Part shown: one piece after another, positions 2,195 through 37,456 of the stretch
Position numbering within the stretch: position 1 is the stretch's first letter
Layout: every line of letters starts with the position of its first letter
Source of the DNA: an uncultured Lachnospiraceae bacterium
GTDB lineage: Bacteria; Bacillota; Clostridia; Lachnospirales; Lachnospiraceae
Assembly: GCA_902794825.1 (NCBI GenBank)
Contig: CADBIU010000010.1
Span: forward strand, 1 to 38,071
DNA: 38,071 nucleotides
Reading direction: 5' to 3'
The notes under the pieces: generated by a model
Told to the model about the DNA's origin: nothing
Databases searched by the model: none
What the model saw: only the letters and a program-made list of their open reading frames with translations
Position numbers and translations under genes: made by a program

Positions 2195-3025
2195 TTACGC
2201 TTCATTCATTTCAGTCAACAGTTCCTTGCGCACATAATAGTGTCTTCCCAGCCACTCGGAAATACCGTCAAGTCCGGGATAGACTACTCGTTCCGTAATG
2301 TTCTGATGGTCCAAAAAATCCCTGATCTGCCAGCGCAGCTCCTTGGCAATGACATACCGGGCCGTATTCTGTGTGTTCTCATTGAGAAATCCCACAATAT
2401 CGGTCATCTCGATCGGAACAACAGAAAAGAATGAGTATTGACTGATGATCCTCCTGTCGATCGACGGCGGCTCGATCACGACCATACTCTCATCCTTCAT
2501 ATCCAGGTCGTACTCCTCAGGCGACCCGCAGGCTTCGCTGAACATATCTACCGAAAACACGGTCGAATGGTATTTATTCATGATCTTCCGGTATTTGTCC
2601 GGAAGGAGCTCATGCAGTTCATGCACGTCAATTCTCCACACGACGGAGTCGTGTTCCGTCATCCGGTCCAGATCCTGCTCCGCTGTGGAAAAGTGCAGCG
2701 CCATCAGCGGTGAAAATGACCAGTCCAGAAGTCTTGTGGGAAGCCCGTGATGCTGACCGAGTATCATCTGCTGCCAGACATTTCCCTCGATGACCGGCTT
2801 CTCCATGACCGCGTATTTGGTAAAATTCTGAAGCATCGGCATCTCAAGCTGCCTGCTCAGAGATTTACAGTTTCTCATAAGACTGGTGGAGAGCGTAAAA
2901 CCCGAATCACACTCCCCCCTGTAAATACACAGATCTCTGTAGCGTTTCAGTTCAGGTCTGTATGTCTTCTCCCCGATCAGATCCATCAACTGATCCATCG
3001 TCTCAATTCGTATATTCCTGATCAT
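2195..3025 (-). CDS. FRG-domain protein
   Basis: This is a 276-residue soluble protein with the FRG domain signature: YRGE at 35-38 and QHHGLPTRLLDW at 91-102, followed by a hydrophobic helix with SPLMALHFS. FRG domains are named for a conserved Phe/Tyr-Arg-Gly motif. Their biochemical activity is not established, and they often occur in accessory or conflict-related neighbourhoods. No membrane segment or signal peptide is visible. The ATG has a good AAGGA site. The gene lies 9 bases after the GTPase gene and 15 before the sugar-transporter ATPase gene. A joint role with the GTPase is inferred from this spacing only; no target or substrate can be proposed. Confidence 0.85.
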   Translation of the reverse strand: MIRNIRIETMDQLMDLIGEKTYRPELKRYRDLCIYRGECDSGFTLSTSLMRNCKSLSRQLEMPMLQNFTKYAVMEKPVIEGNVWQQMILGQHHGLPTRLLDWSFSPLMALHFSTAEQDLDRMTEHDSVVWRIDVHELHELLPDKYRKIMNKYHSTVFSVDMFSEACGSPEEYDLDMKDESMVVIEPPSIDRRIISQYSFFSVVPIEMTDIVGFLNENTQNTARYVIAKELRWQIRDFLDHQNITERVVYPGLDGISEWLGRHYYVRKELLTEMNEA

Positions 3026-3034
3026 TTTTCCTTC

Positions 3035-4285
3035 TCACTTTTTGGGAAATAATTCTGACAGAAGATCCCCCAGTTTCTTCGGATCGATCACGCCGTCGTG
3101 CTTGTCTGCGTAGTTCTTCACCGCCTTCATAATGCCCGGCATATAGTTGCTGAACAGGGATAGTGCCTCAGCCTCCCAGTCAACCGCTTTGTATTCAGCA
3201 TCGCCCTTATAGACCCGCTCAAACATCGTGATACTGATCTCACCCGCGGCAAATGTGACGATCCCGGCAGTGACCGCGTTGAGGACCGATCCCGCCGCGT
3301 TAAGCCCTGGGATGAGCTTGAGCTGGTTCAGGAGCGTTCTGCCCGCGATGGTTGTCATCCCCACTTTCAGTACACTGTTGACGATTGAATTGACCTGAGA
3401 ATTCTCCCTGATCCCATAGGTCTTCGCGATCGCCCCCATCATGGCCGTCTGCAGAGGCACGAGTACGGCCGCGTCCGGCGTCGGGATCGGAATGGCGCCC
3501 ACCGCGCTTGCCGCCGTTGTAGCGCCGACAACAATTGACTGAGCCATACCGCGCTTAATGCTCACGTCGATGTCCTTTACCGCGTTGTTGGCTATCCGTA
3601 TTCCTTTGGGAGCGAGCTCATTGGTCTTCTCTACCAGTTTATCCAGATTCCTGGGCACGACGCTGAAGGTCTCGTTGATCGGATAGAGCTTCGCTACAAC
3701 AGGTATGATCCCCTCTATGACCAAAGGGTTCTTTGTATGCTTACTGTTATACTTGTGGATGGCATCCTTGGCCATCCGCACATTCTCTTCCTCTTCGATC
3801 TCGGAATACGATTTGGTAAAGACCAGGATGATTGGAACTCCCTTCCAGTCATCCGAGACCGATTTGATATAGCTCAGGACTGACTGGTCGATCCTCTTGA
3901 CTGTTCCGTCAATGCAGAACCAGATCATATGGATCAGTTTCTCCACATTCTTCTGCCTGACGCCCTCTTTTCCGAACTTCGCGATATCGTTTCTTGTCTT
4001 GTGCTGATGGAAAAAATCGAACTCATAACCCGCGGTGTCGATCATCCTGAAAGGCAGAGAGTCGCTCTGATAGACGGCGATCTCTTTTGTAACCGGGTCC
4101 CCGATGCCAGTCCTGGCCTTTTCCTCTCCCAGCATCGCGTTGATCAGTGTGCTCTTTCCGCATCCGGAGGTGCCAAGGAGCATTACATTGATCCTGCCGT
4201 CGTTCATGTCAATGATCTCTTCATAGCCTGACTTGTCTCTGTTTTGTCCCAGACTTATCTCTTTCTTATCTCCAAAAGGAAACAT
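3035..4285 (-). CDS. Era/dynamin-like GTPase with C-terminal membrane-associated helical domain
   Basis: This 416-residue protein has a P-loop GTPase domain at about residues 30-225: G1 GTSGCGKST (38-46), G3 DTAGYE (83-88) and a G4-position VFTKSY (155-160). The usual Asp of the TKxD guanine-specificity motif is replaced, so nucleotide specificity is uncertain. Residues 240-350 form a small-residue-rich helical region (SIVVGATTAASAVGAIPIP, then PLQTAMMGAIAKTYGI) resembling the DUF697/YcjF-like membrane-associating domains often found behind such GTPases. The N-terminus has no signal peptide. The start ATG follows GGAGAG and lies 1 base after the hydrolase gene. Its role is unknown. Membrane association and pairing with the FRG protein are inferences. 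Confidence 0.85.
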   Translation of the reverse strand: MFPFGDKKEISLGQNRDKSGYEEIIDMNDGRINVMLLGTSGCGKSTLINAMLGEEKARTGIGDPVTKEIAVYQSDSLPFRMIDTAGYEFDFFHQHKTRNDIAKFGKEGVRQKNVEKLIHMIWFCIDGTVKRIDQSVLSYIKSVSDDWKGVPIILVFTKSYSEIEEEENVRMAKDAIHKYNSKHTKNPLVIEGIIPVVAKLYPINETFSVVPRNLDKLVEKTNELAPKGIRIANNAVKDIDVSIKRGMAQSIVVGATTAASAVGAIPIPTPDAAVLVPLQTAMMGAIAKTYGIRENSQVNSIVNSVLKVGMTTIAGRTLLNQLKLIPGLNAAGSVLNAVTAGIVTFAAGEISITMFERVYKGDAEYKAVDWEAEALSLFSNYMPGIMKAVKNYADKHDGVIDPKKLGDLLSELFPKK

Positions 4286-33115: not shown

Positions 33116-34645
33116 TCACTCAAAGATCATACCAAGCATCTCCCATGCATAGGCGTCCTTTTTCTGTTCTGCGGGGGCGAGTTCCGCATAGGGCTGCATC
33201 AGCGGATGCAGTCTTTTCTCATTGTCACGTTTTTCGCTTCGGCACCAATTGTGCATCAGGTAAAAATGCATCCAGCGCCGGTGCTCCATCTCCTGATATT
33301 CTTCTCCTCTCATCTCCCTTGTGCTGCGGTAGACCTCATAAGCCCGCCTGCAGTTCTCGGGAGTTACGGCGGTGATCGTCTCATCTCCGAGTAAGTACCG
33401 AATTTTGACAAGCAGGTGGTCCGCCGCGGCAATATTGGACTGCTTGAGGAAATAACTCAGGTCCTCCCACTTTGTCGGGCTGGAGGATCCGCGGTTGTAG
33501 ATATCGTTCATCATCACAGCCTGCCTGTTCAGGGCGTCTTTCATGACATACTCCCTTGTCAGGATCTGCTCTCCTCTGCCAAAAGACTGCACACCCGGCA
33601 TTTCCTCCGACAGCCGGACATGTACATTCTTTCTGATGCCGAACCAGGTGCTGAGTTTCTCCAGCACGTCAAGATTAAGCGAGTCGTCGTCCCTGCAGAT
33701 GATGATGCGGTCGGCCTTTCTCAAAAGGTCCATCTTCTCATGCCACTTTTCTTTGTGGAATACAAGCCTGTCCTCCTGCGAATCTCCGGAATTCAGCGCG
33801 CGGACAAGTTCGCCGTGCATGTCGGCAAATCCCGCTTCGTCTTCGAACACATGGTATTCCACGGTTCGATCGGGCGTGTACACATTGGTGAGCAGCGCTC
33901 TCTCCAGCAGCGCGCTCCCGTATTTTCCGCATCCGATCAGAACTACTGTCTTTTCCCTCAAAAGAAGAGGATGATACTGCCAGTACCATCGTCCCAGGCA
34001 CTCCGCTTTCCCAAACAAATGCATATTGTCGGGCACTGAATCGATCATCATGTCTGACATGCAGTAGCACTCAATGGACTTTTCTGCCGCCGCCAGTCCC
34101 GCGCAGTAATTCTCCCAAGGGTCCTCACCCATGAAAATGGCCGTCATTCTGCCGTCCCCTTCTCTGAGGTCCTTAAGAGCGGCAATATCAGCGTCCGTGC
34201 AGAGTATATTGCCCGAGCCCGCATCTCCGGTATTCTCACCTTGAAAGATGAGCACACAGTTTTCTTCCCTGCCCAGTTCCTGCGCCAGAGTCAGGGAATC
34301 CCTGTTTGCGGATCCAAAGACATACCACTGCTTATCCCTGTTTCTGTACAGTTTCGCTATCGGCAGAAACTGTTCTCCGATTATGCGGATGGAGACACTG
34401 ATCACGGCGGATAAAACCCCCAGACTGCACAGTGCCAGAATGATCCCCAGAACTCTGCCGGCACCGGTTACAGGAGACAGATCCCCGTAACCCACAGTAG
34501 TCAGGGTGATCAGTGAATACCATATGGCATCCCAGATCGTTCTGATCGAAGCTCCGTCCGCGCCCGACTCCACTACTGTCAGAAGGACTACTATGACTGC
34601 ATAGGCGCCGATCGCCCCTGCCACCAGTTTCAGATTTCGTTTCAT
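33116..34645 (-). CDS. K+ channel with two RCK-like domains and a C-terminal RyR-like domain
   Basis: This is a 509-residue protein. Two membrane helices (about 7-24 and 64-90) flank a pore helix and the selectivity filter TVGYGD (50-55), a two-TM potassium channel. The cytoplasmic part starts with a Rossmann-like module (about 107-200) and a second one at 233-320 beginning TVVLIGCGKYGSALLERAL, as in tandem RCK/TrkA-N domains. Residues 450-500 resemble a ryanodine-receptor (RyR) repeat: MEHRRWMHFYLMHNW, then HPLMQPYAEL. The RyR domain would be expected to sense a ligand or partner and gate the pore (inference). GGAGG precedes the ATG, which is 1 base after the stop of its paralogue. Confidence 0.88.
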   Translation of the reverse strand: MKRNLKLVAGAIGAYAVIVVLLTVVESGADGASIRTIWDAIWYSLITLTTVGYGDLSPVTGAGRVLGIILALCSLGVLSAVISVSIRIIGEQFLPIAKLYRNRDKQWYVFGSANRDSLTLAQELGREENCVLIFQGENTGDAGSGNILCTDADIAALKDLREGDGRMTAIFMGEDPWENYCAGLAAAEKSIECYCMSDMMIDSVPDNMHLFGKAECLGRWYWQYHPLLLREKTVVLIGCGKYGSALLERALLTNVYTPDRTVEYHVFEDEAGFADMHGELVRALNSGDSQEDRLVFHKEKWHEKMDLLRKADRIIICRDDDSLNLDVLEKLSTWFGIRKNVHVRLSEEMPGVQSFGRGEQILTREYVMKDALNRQAVMMNDIYNRGSSSPTKWEDLSYFLKQSNIAAADHLLVKIRYLLGDETITAVTPENCRRAYEVYRSTREMRGEEYQEMEHRRWMHFYLMHNWCRSEKRDNEKRLHPLMQPYAELAPAEQKKDAYAWEMLGMIFE

Positions 34646-34646
34646 C

Positions 34647-36521
34647 TTAACCCTCCGCCTGTTCCTGTCTCAGAATCCTGGGAATGATCAGGACATTGTT
34701 GATATCAGACTGCTTATAGTTAACATTTCTTCCCGTAACCTTTTTTTCTTTCTCAGACAGCTTGTCCAGCTGATCGTAGGGGATCAGGCAGGCGTGGCTC
34801 CTCTCGTCGGTATCCTTGCCGATCCTGGGATTCGCGGGCTTTCCCTCCCGCAGATTCTCTATGTATTCCTCAGCCCTTTTATCAAACTCCTCTTCGGTCA
34901 TCGCTCTGTATCCGTTGCAGAAGTGGAAAGCGCACCAGCGCATGTGCTCCATTTCTCCCAGCACGTTGAGTTTCTCTTCACCAAGCAGTTTTTCCCAATT
35001 GTCGTTCATTGCCTCCTCCCTGGTGCTTCCGGAAGCCCTGACGATAGCAGGCAGAAATTCCGCGGACGCCCTGGAGGACATTTTGCTGAAAGAGTCGCAG
35101 GTCACCCACTTGTCCCAATCGGACCTGTCAGAATCATCATAAACACTGTTGATCAGGATCGCGTTTCTGTCCTCATTCACAGCGGAAAGCATGTCGTAAG
35201 AATACACATTTTTGGTCAAAATCCCGCTCCCGATCGCCTGCTGGTAACTGACATGATCCTTGACGCACTTGAGAACGCAGATATTTTCGGCGTTCATCCT
35301 CTTGAGGTATAGCATGAGATGGTCAGCTATTTCTGTATTCATCTCGTCATTTCCGGTGCACACGGCAATGTATTTCACTGTGCCCAGGCGGCTTCCAAGG
35401 TAGTCGTAGAACTCTTTGCTCCTGCCGTCGTCATTGTGCAGTTCGATCTCATACTGATTTACAAGATCCTTGCACTCCGCAAAGAGATAGCCGGCCTCCT
35501 GCCCGCTCATAGGAGAAAACACCGCGGCGTGGAAACGACTGCCGACAAACTGGCCGTTCATGATGAGGTGGCGCAGGACCGCCTGCCCGCACTCCCCCAG
35601 TCCCACAACTATGCAGTCAAAATCCTGCACAGCCCGCCCGCTCTCATCAAAACTCACACATTCCCAGGGCGGACACAGCCTGATCATTGCCCTCGCCATA
35701 AGTTCCGAAGCCTCGAACACATTTACATACCCGAAGCCGTACTCGTCTTTCGAGACCTGCAGCATGGAGGCGATGATCTCCTCAGTTCCGGCCAGAGTCA
35801 GGCTCGTTTTTGCAGGGGAGACTTTCATCTCTTCAAACGCGTCTTTGAGTTTTAAGGCATAGAAAAGATTCTTCTGTGGATTCTGGTCGAGCGCAAAGAT
35901 CTCTATTTTGTTCCTGCTGCTGATCTTTAGTTTCCGAAGTTCCCGCTCAGAAGACTGGGCGATCCCTTTGCCGGTAATGACCGCCATCCCCATATTGATG
36001 ATTTCCTGCGCCCTGGGCTCCGCGTCGTTTTCGCTGATCATGACCACTGCGCAGTTCTCATTGGCAAGGCACTCGCGGCCCACTTTTATACTGTTGTCAT
36101 TGACGCCGTAAATGATCGTCAGATCCCCGTTCAGCGCCAGAAACAGCCTCAGTTTCCTGAGTCCGGCAGATCCCACCGTAACCATTGCGGCGCTTGCAAT
36201 GGAATAAAATGCCATCAGATGGAAGAGCCAGAAGCAGAATACCCCAAGCCCCGTCTGCATCCAAACCGACCCGCTGATCGCGGACATATCATTTTTGCCC
36301 AGGAACATGCCGATCACGGAAAACGGCGTCCTCACAAGCGAAAGGAATGCGTTCCCGGTGACGTCTGTATAGCCTTTTCCGTATATGATGCTTCCGCCCA
36401 GGACGGCGATCACCATCAGATACGCCGTCAGTTTCGCGGAGTAAGCCGGCTTAAAGGCCATATTGATCACCAGCGCCGTGAATATGATAATTGACAGAAC
36501 AATAACCCAAATTGCAGTCAT
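34647..36521 (-). CDS. Membrane protein with RCK-like domains and RyR-like domain, lacking a K+ filter
   Basis: This is a 624-residue paralogue of the neighbouring channel. The N-terminus has about three membrane helices (1-22, 32-48, 90-115) but no T-V-G-Y-G-type filter. A Rossmann-like module follows (IIYGVNDNS, about 136-215), then a second with VVGLGECGQAVLRHL at 305-319. The C-terminus carries a RyR-like domain (about 523-596: EMEHMRWCAFHFCNGYR, then SHACLIPYDQL). The shared architecture suggests a regulatory subunit of the channel. The start is ATG 36521 with AAGGAAGGA upstream; an in-frame TTG at 36539 overlaps the hydrolase stop. It lies 14 bases after the hydrolase gene. Confidence 0.85.
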   Translation of the reverse strand: MTAIWVIVLSIIIFTALVINMAFKPAYSAKLTAYLMVIAVLGGSIIYGKGYTDVTGNAFLSLVRTPFSVIGMFLGKNDMSAISGSVWMQTGLGVFCFWLFHLMAFYSIASAAMVTVGSAGLRKLRLFLALNGDLTIIYGVNDNSIKVGRECLANENCAVVMISENDAEPRAQEIINMGMAVITGKGIAQSSERELRKLKISSRNKIEIFALDQNPQKNLFYALKLKDAFEEMKVSPAKTSLTLAGTEEIIASMLQVSKDEYGFGYVNVFEASELMARAMIRLCPPWECVSFDESGRAVQDFDCIVVGLGECGQAVLRHLIMNGQFVGSRFHAAVFSPMSGQEAGYLFAECKDLVNQYEIELHNDDGRSKEFYDYLGSRLGTVKYIAVCTGNDEMNTEIADHLMLYLKRMNAENICVLKCVKDHVSYQQAIGSGILTKNVYSYDMLSAVNEDRNAILINSVYDDSDRSDWDKWVTCDSFSKMSSRASAEFLPAIVRASGSTREEAMNDNWEKLLGEEKLNVLGEMEHMRWCAFHFCNGYRAMTEEEFDKRAEEYIENLREGKPANPRIGKDTDERSHACLIPYDQLDKLSEKEKKVTGRNVNYKQSDINNVLIIPRILRQEQAEG

Positions 36522-36535
36522 TATGATTCCTTCCT

Positions 36536-37456
36536 TCAATTACTGTGGATAAAAGCCGCGATGTCCCCGATCACATCTTCTCCGATGTGCTGCTCCACAC
36601 TGTACTCTTTCGACGCCTTGAGAATGTCATTATAGATTCCTTTCACAAAGACGTGGTTCAGTTCAGGATACAGTTTATATTGTGTGTTCTCCCTGTCGGC
36701 AAGAAGTTTCTTAAATTTCCGGTAATCGCGCTTAGCAAGTACCTGGAAGTCCTTGCCGCCCTGAAGGATCAGGACCGGCTTATTGCTGGCCAAAAGATAG
36801 TCTGCTGCAGTCTTTTGCCCCATCTCCTTGAAGTAGTAAAGCGACAGGTTTCCCGCAAATTTCTTTTTCTTTGCTTCCTCGTCGCTCATCTGATATAAGC
36901 CGCGAAATCTCTTTTTATAAAATCTGTACTCAAGTCCGATGATCTTCTTAAGGATCGAGCTGCCGCGTCCGGCCTGTCTTAGCTGCCTCAGCACAATTTC
37001 TTCGAGGCGGTAAGGAGTTCCCGCCATCATTATAAGCCCCTTCACGTCCGCGCCTTCCGCATCGATCCTCGGAGCGAGCATGGCTCCCATGCTGTGGCCC
37101 AGAATATAGATGCGGTCGTGATCGATCCGCGGATCTCTCTTCAGCATCTGTACTGCGAGCAGCGCGTCTTCGATCGTCTCTTCCTTCACGGTGAGGTGCT
37201 TATTCCTGATCATCCTGCGGGCGTGTACAAAAGTGCGCTTGTCATAGCGCAGGGAAGCAGCGCCGTGTCTCGCAAGACCTTCAGCAAGGTCCTTGAAGGG
37301 CGTCAGCTTCAACACCTTCTCATCCATATTGCTGGCTCCGGAGCCGTGCACCATCACAACGGCGGGCACCGGCTTCGATAGATCAGACGGAAGCGTCATA
37401 AGTCCATTCAGCGGATACTCTGTTCCCGCTCCCACAACGATTTTTTCACTGTACAT
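36536..37456 (-). CDS. Alpha/beta hydrolase (dienelactone hydrolase/acyl-peptidase-like)
   Basis: This 306-residue cytoplasmic enzyme has no signal peptide. The oxyanion/entry motif is VHGSGASN (36-43), the nucleophile elbow is GHSMG (120-124, Ser122), Asp236 is in GGKDFQV and His268 in NHVF. An inserted helical lid (about 150-215) is rich in Arg/Lys. The family includes esterases and peptidases, and the substrate is unknown. It is the first gene of the operon with the RyR/K+ channel pair, behind an AGGAGG site and a recognisable promoter, so it may make, modify or destroy a ligand of the channel, which is speculation from gene order. Confidence 0.88.
   Translation of the reverse strand: MYSEKIVVGAGTEYPLNGLMTLPSDLSKPVPAVVMVHGSGASNMDEKVLKLTPFKDLAEGLARHGAASLRYDKRTFVHARRMIRNKHLTVKEETIEDALLAVQMLKRDPRIDHDRIYILGHSMGAMLAPRIDAEGADVKGLIMMAGTPYRLEEIVLRQLRQAGRGSSILKKIIGLEYRFYKKRFRGLYQMSDEEAKKKKFAGNLSLYYFKEMGQKTAADYLLASNKPVLILQGGKDFQVLAKRDYRKFKKLLADRENTQYKLYPELNHVFVKGIYNDILKASKEYSVEQHIGEDVIGDIAAFIHSN

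What the first reader, a model, noticed from the sequence alone, without database searches (positions are those of the whole stretch)
33116..36521. Paired RyR-domain proteins, one with a K+ channel pore: a candidate ligand-gated heteromeric channel
Seen: two adjacent genes (1-base gap) encode the same architecture of N-terminal membrane region, two Rossmann/RCK-like modules and a C-terminal region with RyR-repeat hallmarks (E-H-x-R-W and H-x-x-L/C-x-P-Y-x-x-L). Only the downstream protein has a K+ filter, TVGYGD. Known: RCK domains gate potassium channels by binding nucleotides or ions; RyR domains occur in eukaryotic calcium-release channels and in some bacterial proteins of unclear role. Inference: the filterless paralogue is a regulatory subunit, and the RyR domains sense a common ligand, possibly a stress or infection signal.
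Basis: partly seen in the sequence, partly recalled or inferred. Interest (0 to 1): 0.78.

Follow-up and report, generated by a model that had tools for sequence, protein, structure and literature searches.

The report
Bacterial potassium channel with ryanodine-receptor domain
Two neighbouring genes in a bacterium related to gut and rumen Lachnospiraceae encode a potassium channel and its sister protein that both carry a ryanodine-receptor-like pocket, and in many relatives they sit beside TIR-type enzyme genes, which suggests that the channel is opened by a small immune-type signal made from NAD.

Summary
P0002 (33116-34645) is a two-TM K+ channel (TVGYGD) with tandem RCK domains and a C-terminal RyR domain; P0001 (34647-36521) is a paralogue without that filter. 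The RyR pocket is telling: H455, W458, H480, D497 align, at equal spacing, with H75, W78, H100, D117 of phage RyDEP, which hold 2'/3'cADPR (preprint PMC13232231). They are kept in 81, 81, 78 and 78 of 81 channels, P0001's counterparts in 65 of 66 ORFs.

Of 80 relatives kept (best of 218), 31 loci carry TIR genes; 25 have one downstream on the same strand, 11 of them within 60 bp; 28 large TIR genes were seen against about 1.6 expected. Two membrane-TIR designs recur, and the linkage is scattered over the channel tree. 49 loci show none. The window's own locus has none either, but its genome holds a like TIR cassette elsewhere.

Best reading: a Thoeris-like pathway whose effector is a K+ channel gated by an ADPR-type signal. 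Signal, gating, complex and defence role are untested. A 2025 survey of TIR systems could not be read, so priority is uncertain.

The parts
34647..36521 (-). P0001 ('A'), 624 aa: membrane region, tandem RCK, divergent RyR-like C-terminus, no K+ filter. A TTG start at 36539 is also possible.
36291..36308 (-). P0001 residues 72-77, conserved Met-Phe-x-Gly-x-Asn at the place where the selectivity filter would lie
   Evidence: M72 61, F73 59, G75 58, N77 57 of 66 ORFs
35202..36125 (-). P0001 tandem RCK/Rossmann modules, about residues 133-440 (bounds read by me from the model's secondary structure)
   Evidence: Foldseek LjCASTOR and BK gating rings
34686..34970 (-). P0001 RyR-like region, residues 518-612, pocket residues H526, W529, H576, D606
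   Evidence: 65 of 66 ORFs each, the other a gap; hhalign to P0002 family; no Pfam match
33116..34645 (-). P0002 ('B'), 509 aa: K+ channel, tandem RCK, RyR domain
34481..34498 (-). P0002 selectivity filter TVGYGD, residues 50-55
   Evidence: GYGD in 79 of 81, the other two gaps
33611..34330 (-). P0002 tandem RCK modules, about residues 106-345 (bounds read by me from the model's secondary structure)
   Evidence: Foldseek GsuK, Slo1, MthK
33152..33304 (-). P0002 RyR domain (Pfam match residues 448-498), pocket residues H455, W458, H480, D497
   Evidence: PF02026 in 46 of 46; RyR1 chimera E 1.9e-18; residue counts and RyDEP alignment
36536..37456 (-). EstD-like alpha/beta hydrolase directly upstream, possibly in the same operon
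   Evidence: in 3 of the 80 related loci

Best explanation
P0002 and P0001 form, or contribute to, a ligand-gated cation channel whose RyR domains bind an ADP-ribose-type nucleotide (2'cADPR, 3'cADPR or a relative) made from NAD+ by membrane-anchored TIR enzymes. Proposed path: a TIR protein with an extracytoplasmic TPR or beta-propeller domain senses a cue at the cell surface; its cytosolic TIR domain makes the signal; the signal binds the RyR pocket and moves the tandem-RCK gating ring; the P0002 pore opens, K+ leaves and the cell is depolarised or arrested. P0001 is a paralogous second subunit that senses the same ligand. Shown by sequence: domain content, pocket residues, linkage to TIR genes, a hydrophobic segment in the TIR proteins, the glutamate position. 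Inferred: the ligand, its direct gating of the channel, the heteromer, the direction of flux, the cue and the biological purpose (anti-phage defence most likely, but not shown). For the window's own copy the TIR partner would act in trans.
For: Pocket: H455, W458, H480, D497 of P0002 have the spacing (+3, +25, +42) of H75, W78, H100, D117 of RyDEP (abstract, passages and section 5 read) and align with the gp78 sequence directly; 81, 81, 78 and 78 of 81 channels keep them. Linkage: TIR genes in 31 of 80 loci: 28 of 48 in A-B order, 3 of 17 without adjacent A by the rule, 0 of 15 in B-A order; 25 loci have one downstream on the same strand, 11 of them within 60 bp (overlaps included); 28 TIR ORFs of 340 aa or more in 1.294 Mb against about 1.6 expected from 267 PF13676 hits in 214 Mb of the same 80 genomes (two different TIR models, and the background includes the linked genes). 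In 11 of the 24 genomes that were chosen for a TIR beside the channel, the single PF13676 hit of the genome has the frame length of the linked TIR (G067, G068, G073, G076-G080, G082-G084). On the channel tree (quick method) starred branches force at least 9 changes of the TIR label. Two TIR designs, both with W-x3-E: 19 of 19 (~685 aa, TPR) and 9 of 9 (~1100 aa, propeller). Own genome: on contig C3 a surface-protein-like gene, a 282-aa and a 706-aa TIR gene, the TIRs 53% and 57% identical to members of the TIR pairs directly downstream of channels in L098 and L097. Other backgrounds: Arcobacter plasmid RCK + RyR + DUF4062, DUF4062 being a TIR-like NADase (abstract of PMC13174449); B. fibrisolvens plasmid with a TIR gene before an A-type gene. 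Fold: GsuK is the nearest solved channel, and ADP and NAD+ activate it (start of the abstract of PMC3510474 as shown in the listing).
Against: 49 of 80 loci show no TIR gene in the stretch held, including the window's nearest relatives and all 15 B-A loci; some of these stretches are short. TIR presence near the channel shows association, not a pathway. RyDEP's ligands need not carry over: 2 of 8 tested phage homologues did not form a stable complex in the mobility shift, and the human RyR3 R12 domain was solved with AMP-PCP, so the ligand could be ATP or ADP. P0001's RyR match is not seen by Pfam. Genus-level co-occurrence is moderate and uncorrected for relatedness: 17 of 21 genomes with the channel profile against 15 of 41 others match the TIR-propeller profile, some only in its TIR part. 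In the Arcobacter triad the RCK protein has no channel match, so it supports RyR with RCK and an NADase, not a K+ pore. No PADLOC model matches either window protein. The 80 loci are the best-scoring of 218, so they favour close kin.
Confidence: 0.6

Rival explanations
1. A housekeeping multi-ligand K+ channel of the GsuK/MthK class: RCK and RyR domains sense ATP, ADP or NAD(H) and set K+ flux to the energy state; TIR neighbours are incidental or a later use of the same channel.
For: Foldseek nearest is GsuK, activated by ADP and NAD+ (start of abstract in the listing). The human RyR3 R12 domain was solved with AMP-PCP and shares the ligand residues. TIR-free loci exist, including all 15 in B-A order.
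Against: 28 large TIR genes against about 1.6 expected, tightly spaced on the same strand, with linkage dispersed on the tree. The family is patchy: the RCK2+RyR profile matches 21 of 62 genomes of the genus and 25 of 391 of the class, several of the latter only in part.
Confidence: 0.22
2. The RyR domains are not sensors but glycosidases or sinks: with the RyDEP His/Asp pair kept, they destroy or soak up the TIR signal and so end or damp it, with the channel as localiser.
For: H75 and D117 of RyDEP are its catalytic dyad and both are kept in P0002 and P0001.
Against: None of the eight tested homologues cleaved although six bound; only RyDEP itself cleaved. Fusion to a tandem-RCK gating ring and a pore points to gating.
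Confidence: 0.1
3. P0001 is itself a pore-forming subunit with a non-canonical filter, so the pair makes two channels, or one heteromer of altered selectivity, rather than one channel plus a regulator. (Compatible with the best explanation, so its odds are not exclusive.)
For: TM, short helix, loop, TM then tandem RCK in the model; conserved MFxGxN at the filter place; CASTOR gating ring as best fold match; A-type gene next to TIR without an adjacent B gene in B. fibrisolvens.
Against: No Pfam channel match in 48 members at E 0.01. No oligomer was modelled. A filter role is inferred from place and conservation only.
Confidence: 0.3

Closest known systems
GsuK / MthK / Slo K+ channels (tandem RCK gating ring)
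   Same: Pore, K+ filter, RCK modules; Foldseek top hits
   Different: No RyR domain, no paired paralogue, no TIR linkage known to me (recalled); GsuK is activated by ADP and NAD+ (listing)
Thoeris defence (ThsB TIR + effector)
   Same: TIR genes beside a gene with a pocket for ADPR-type signals; 7 of the 10 linked TIR proteins scanned pass the ThsB_TIR cut-off
   Different: The candidate effector is an ion channel with RyR, not the SIR2-SLOG or macro-domain ThsA (effector types from the abstract start of PMC11204291); the TIRs appear membrane-anchored with outside TPR or propeller; defence not tested; PADLOC has no match for the pair. Newer Thoeris types (e.g. type VI) could not be compared.
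RyDEP, phage RyR-domain anti-Thoeris proteins (PMC13232231)
   Same: PF02026 member with the four ligand residues at equal spacing
   Different: Stand-alone, 138 aa, of phages, destroys or sequesters the signal; here the domain is fused to a channel of the host
Animal ryanodine receptors (RyR repeats)
   Same: Ion channel bearing RyR repeats; profile match E 1.9e-18
   Different: Ca2+ release channel of about 5000 aa with other domains; here a small K+-type channel with RCK and one RyR unit per chain
CASTOR/DMI1-type channels
   Same: Gating ring is P0001's best fold match; non-canonical filter (recalled)
   Different: No RyR domain (recalled); sequence identity 13% in the fold alignment

Membership tests
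RyR domain family (PF02026) | Match to the family profile | tested here: met
   P0002 family: 46 of 46 at E 0.01, the window protein itself below the curated cut-off. P0001 family: 0 of 48, so not met there
RyR domain family (PF02026) | Ligand residues of RyDEP/RyR R12 (His, Trp, His, Asp) | tested here: met
   81, 81, 78, 78 of 81 channels; 65 of 66 ORFs for each in A
RCK-gated K+ channel | Two-TM pore with K+ filter | tested here: met
   P0002 only: Ion_trans_2 E 2.3e-14, TVGYGD; not met for P0001
RCK-gated K+ channel | Tandem RCK gating ring after the pore | tested here: met
   AlphaFold + Foldseek GsuK E 1e-6, CASTOR/BK rings; single chains only, no ring modelled
Thoeris | TIR gene beside the effector gene | tested here: inconclusive
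   31 of 80 related loci yes; not at the window's locus, where a like cassette is elsewhere in the genome
Thoeris | Known ThsA effector (SIR2-SLOG, macro) | tested here: not met
   No such Pfam or PADLOC match in P0001/P0002
Thoeris | TIR makes an ADPR-type signal; anti-phage activity | not testable with these tools
   Only the W-x3-E position was checked: 28 of 28 in the two large TIR classes, 2 of 21 in the small one
Animal ryanodine receptor family | MIR, RIH, SPRY domains and RyR pore | tested here: not met
   None in the Pfam scan of the window proteins

The most novel reading that the evidence does not exclude
The cADPR-to-ryanodine-receptor axis of animals has a bacterial counterpart: TIR-made ADPR signals opening RyR-domain ion channels as an immune or surface-stress response, so that the RyR repeat is an old receptor for NAD-derived signals that was joined to ion channels before or apart from the animal receptors.
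Probability: 0.4. Interest if true: 0.92.

Novelty: new variant of a known kind. Interest (0 to 1): 0.78.

Why it matters
If true, it adds an ion-channel effector to TIR-based nucleotide signalling, gives a small bacterial model in which direct gating of a RyR-domain channel by ADPR-type molecules can be tested (whether cADPR acts directly on animal RyRs is an old dispute, recalled), and puts the phage RyR-domain proteins that destroy or sponge these signals beside host RyR-domain receptors. The membrane-TIR design also suggests that such signalling can start at the cell surface.

Tried and rejected
Tested and dropped: P0001 in phages gave no match. P0002 in plasmids gave 14 records, 13 of them matches to the pore stretch only. 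The class-wide search found 25 of 391 genomes, several only partial matches, too few for a co-occurrence test, so the genus was used. The stronger genus contrast at E 1e-100 (15 of 21 against 3 of 41) was chosen after seeing the data and is not leaned on. PADLOC was negative for the pair and gave only weak TIR or TPR matches for linked proteins. The ~281-aa TIR class is degenerate: 2 of 21 rows show W..E, and both are ORFs cut by contig ends (L083, L128). The idea that the pair is always kept together is rejected. ORF calls in scripts were greedy and mechanical; some starts overextend into the neighbouring gene (e.g. L081, L070), and in L068 the A gene reads as two overlapping ORFs, both counted among the 66. 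The promoter/terminator scan was not used.

Prior art: searches of the held library for RyR domain with potassium channel, RCK domain, TIR or bacteria, for nucleotide-centric systems with RyR, for Thoeris with ryanodine, potassium channel or ion channel, and for TIR domain with potassium channel and RCK showed no description of this arrangement in the titles and abstract starts that were listed; some searches listed 30 of 35, 20 of 34 and 15 of 239. Of the papers found, parts of three were opened: PMC13232231 (abstract, passages, section 5, part of the references), PMC13174449 (abstract, passages), PMC13142454 (passages). Two works likely to bear on it are not held and were not read: the Yirmiya 2025 preprint on TIR-based systems and Burroughs 2015 (gkv1267, recalled as relevant).
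Full report
WHAT IS THERE. Two minus-strand genes lie one base apart. P0001 (34647-36521, 624 aa) comes first and P0002 (33116-34645, 509 aa) second. P0002 has a two-TM K+ channel pore with TVGYGD (Ion_trans_2 E 2.3e-14). AlphaFold models are confident (pLDDT 88.5 for P0002, 91.2 for P0001). Foldseek against the PDB finds GsuK (E 1e-6), then Slo1 and MthK for P0002, and the LjCASTOR gating ring (E 4.6e-4, the only hit under 0.001) with a BK gating ring at 4.6e-3 for P0001. TM-scores normalised by the query are low (0.28-0.40 for the channel hits of P0002, 0.31 for P0001), so these hits support the RCK type of architecture and not a close relation. The two families align profile to profile over 394 columns, probability 99.5, E 3e-23.

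RyR DOMAIN. The window's P0002 matches PF02026 below the curated cut-off (21.5 vs 27.4 bits), but all 46 members of its alignment match at E 0.01 or better, and the profile matches a RyR1 chimera and full-length RyR1 chains in the PDB (E 1.9e-18 and about 1e-15). P0001's family does not match PF02026 (0 of 48); its RyR-like tail is inferred from homology to P0002 and from conserved residues, with a longer stretch between them. No structure comparison of the RyR part alone was made.

LIGAND POCKET. A 2026 preprint (PMC13232231; abstract, passages, section 5 and part of the reference list read; [quoted passage not shown] P0002 has H455, W458, H480, D497: the same order and spacing (+3, +25, +42). 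The gp78 sequence, fetched from the phage record, aligns accordingly. Across 80 loci plus the window the four are kept in 81, 81, 78 and 78 of 81 channels, and the P0001 counterparts H526, W529, H576, D606 in 65 of 66 ORFs with one gap (one locus, L068, contributes two ORFs of a split A gene).

NEIGHBOURS IN RELATIVES. A scan of named genomes with the RCK2+RyR part (A1, 11 rows) found 218 relatives; the best 80 were kept (L064-L143), by their titles mainly rumen and gut Clostridia and other Firmicutes assemblies. By my scripts, 48 have A then B, 15 have B then A, 17 no adjacent A by the rule used. One of the 17 (L081) does have A, under an overextended B ORF; three have too little flank; 13 have at least 2 kb on both sides and no A. 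So A and B are together in 64 of 80. In 51 of these 64 the gap or overlap is within 20 bases, which fits translational coupling.

TIR LINKAGE. TIR-domain ORFs lie in 31 of 80 loci: 28 of 48 A-B, 0 of 15 B-A, 3 of 17 others. Two designs recur: a ~281-aa plus a ~685-aa TIR gene, the latter TIR, hydrophobic segment, TPR, often with a long surface-protein-like gene between channel and TIRs; and a single ~1100-aa TIR, hydrophobic segment, beta-propeller protein. Of 49 TIR ORFs, 44 are on the channel's strand and 41 are downstream; 25 loci have one downstream, 11 of them within 60 bp. The TIR density of the same 80 genomes is 267 PF13676 hits in about 214 Mb, so about 1.6 are expected in the 1.294 Mb of loci; 28 TIR ORFs of at least 340 aa were seen. 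The two counts use different TIR models (PF13676 for the background, a model built from three linked TIRs for the loci), so the ratio is approximate. In 11 of the 24 genomes that I had chosen for a TIR beside the channel, the genome's only PF13676 hit has the frame length of the linked TIR. On the channel tree (81 rows, quick method) starred branches force at least 9 changes of the TIR label, 12 changes are the fewest when contig-short loci are left out, and the window's clade sits inside a 38-row starred group with 16 TIR-linked members. The W-x3-E position, which I recall as the NADase glutamate, is kept in 19 of 19 and 9 of 9 of the two large classes and in 2 of 21 of the small one, those two being contig-cut ORFs.

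OTHER BACKGROUNDS. An Arcobacter plasmid has an RCK protein (no channel match), a RyR protein (PF02026 E 4e-10) and a DUF4062-TPR protein in a row near a type I restriction subunit, an integrase and a transposase; DUF4062 is reported as a TIR-like NADase with an anti-phage role (abstract of PMC13174449). A Butyrivibrio fibrisolvens plasmid has an annotated TIR gene before an A-type gene with no B beside it.

THE WINDOW'S OWN GENOME. No TIR gene lies near the pair. The genome (84.6% complete assembly) has six TIR loci over the cut-off. On contig C3, a surface-protein-like gene (28% identical to the one in L070), a 282-aa TIR and a 706-aa TIR-TPR gene form a like cassette, the TIRs 53% and 57% identical to members of the TIR pairs directly downstream of channels in L098 and L097. 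A TIR-propeller gene on C13 is also present; its open frame is 693 aa against 1085 in the near-identical relative G012. In the genus, matches to the TIR-propeller profile (some only to its TIR part) occur in 17 of 21 genomes with the channel profile and 15 of 41 others (Fisher p 0.001, relatedness not corrected); one of the 21, G027, is a weak and interrupted match.

MECHANISM. The best reading is a TIR-made ADPR-type signal that opens a RyR-domain K+ channel: surface cue, TIR activity, signal, RyR pocket, RCK ring, pore. Shown: genes, domains, residues, linkage. Inferred: everything dynamic. Topology of the TIR proteins (N-terminus in, sensor out) is inferred: by a simple hydropathy rule 38 of 48 TIR proteins show exactly one segment after residue 120, nine show two or three (neighbouring windows in the examples printed), one none, and the seven examples printed have basic residues just before it. 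P0001's role is open: regulator, or second pore type with an MFxGxN loop in place of the filter.

VERDICT. It is best filed as a Thoeris-like variant with an ion-channel effector, not as Thoeris itself, since no known ThsA effector is present and no activity has been measured.

Noticed in passing
window 2195-4285 (-): An FRG-domain protein (PF08867 E 1.4e-21) directly beside a GTPase (MMR_HSR1 E 7.7e-13).
   Followed up: no
L063 5214-5519 (-) and 5647-9207 (-): Beside an A-type gene without a channel gene: a stand-alone RyR-domain protein (PF02026 E 3e-35; second pocket His is Thr; 56% identical to a stretch of phage contig MT837259.1 from human faeces) and a 1186-aa protein kinase whose middle shows RyR-like EHxxW and HPC motifs by eye.
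   Followed up: partly
L152 4940-8663: Arcobacter plasmid: RCK protein, RyR protein and DUF4062-TPR protein in a row near restriction, integrase and transposase genes.
   Followed up: partly
L153 3517-6249: Methylobacterium plasmid: 910-aa RyR-domain protein a few genes from a SIR2-family protein.
   Followed up: no
L154 3236-11487: Butyrivibrio fibrisolvens plasmid: TIR-propeller gene, A-type gene, then an EAL-domain gene; a relative of the EAL protein also follows the B-A pair in L130.
   Followed up: partly
L123, L132, L133, L139, about 3 kb after B: In four B-A loci a gene of one cluster follows the pair; the member in L123 matches nucleoside hydrolases (PF01156 E 5.5e-21), possibly linked to nucleotide turnover.
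   Followed up: no
L070 10930-13458 and 22 other ORFs of the same cluster (23 in 18 loci): A long gene often lies between channel and TIR genes; three of eight members shown have a hydrophobic start like a signal peptide, and the L070 copy has no Pfam match. A relative lies before the TIR pair of the window's genome (L155 6222-9206).
   Followed up: partly
L061 8586-10448 and L062 6842-8704: A-type genes 63% and 60% identical to P0001 without a B gene beside them, while a B-type gene of the same genomes lies on another contig.
   Followed up: partly
L068 2-1293: The A gene reads as two overlapping ORFs in different frames; broken or an assembly error.
   Followed up: no
G000:C13 31885-33519: The TIR-propeller frame of the window's genome is 693 aa against 1085 aa in a near-identical relative; may be broken or an assembly error.
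   Followed up: no
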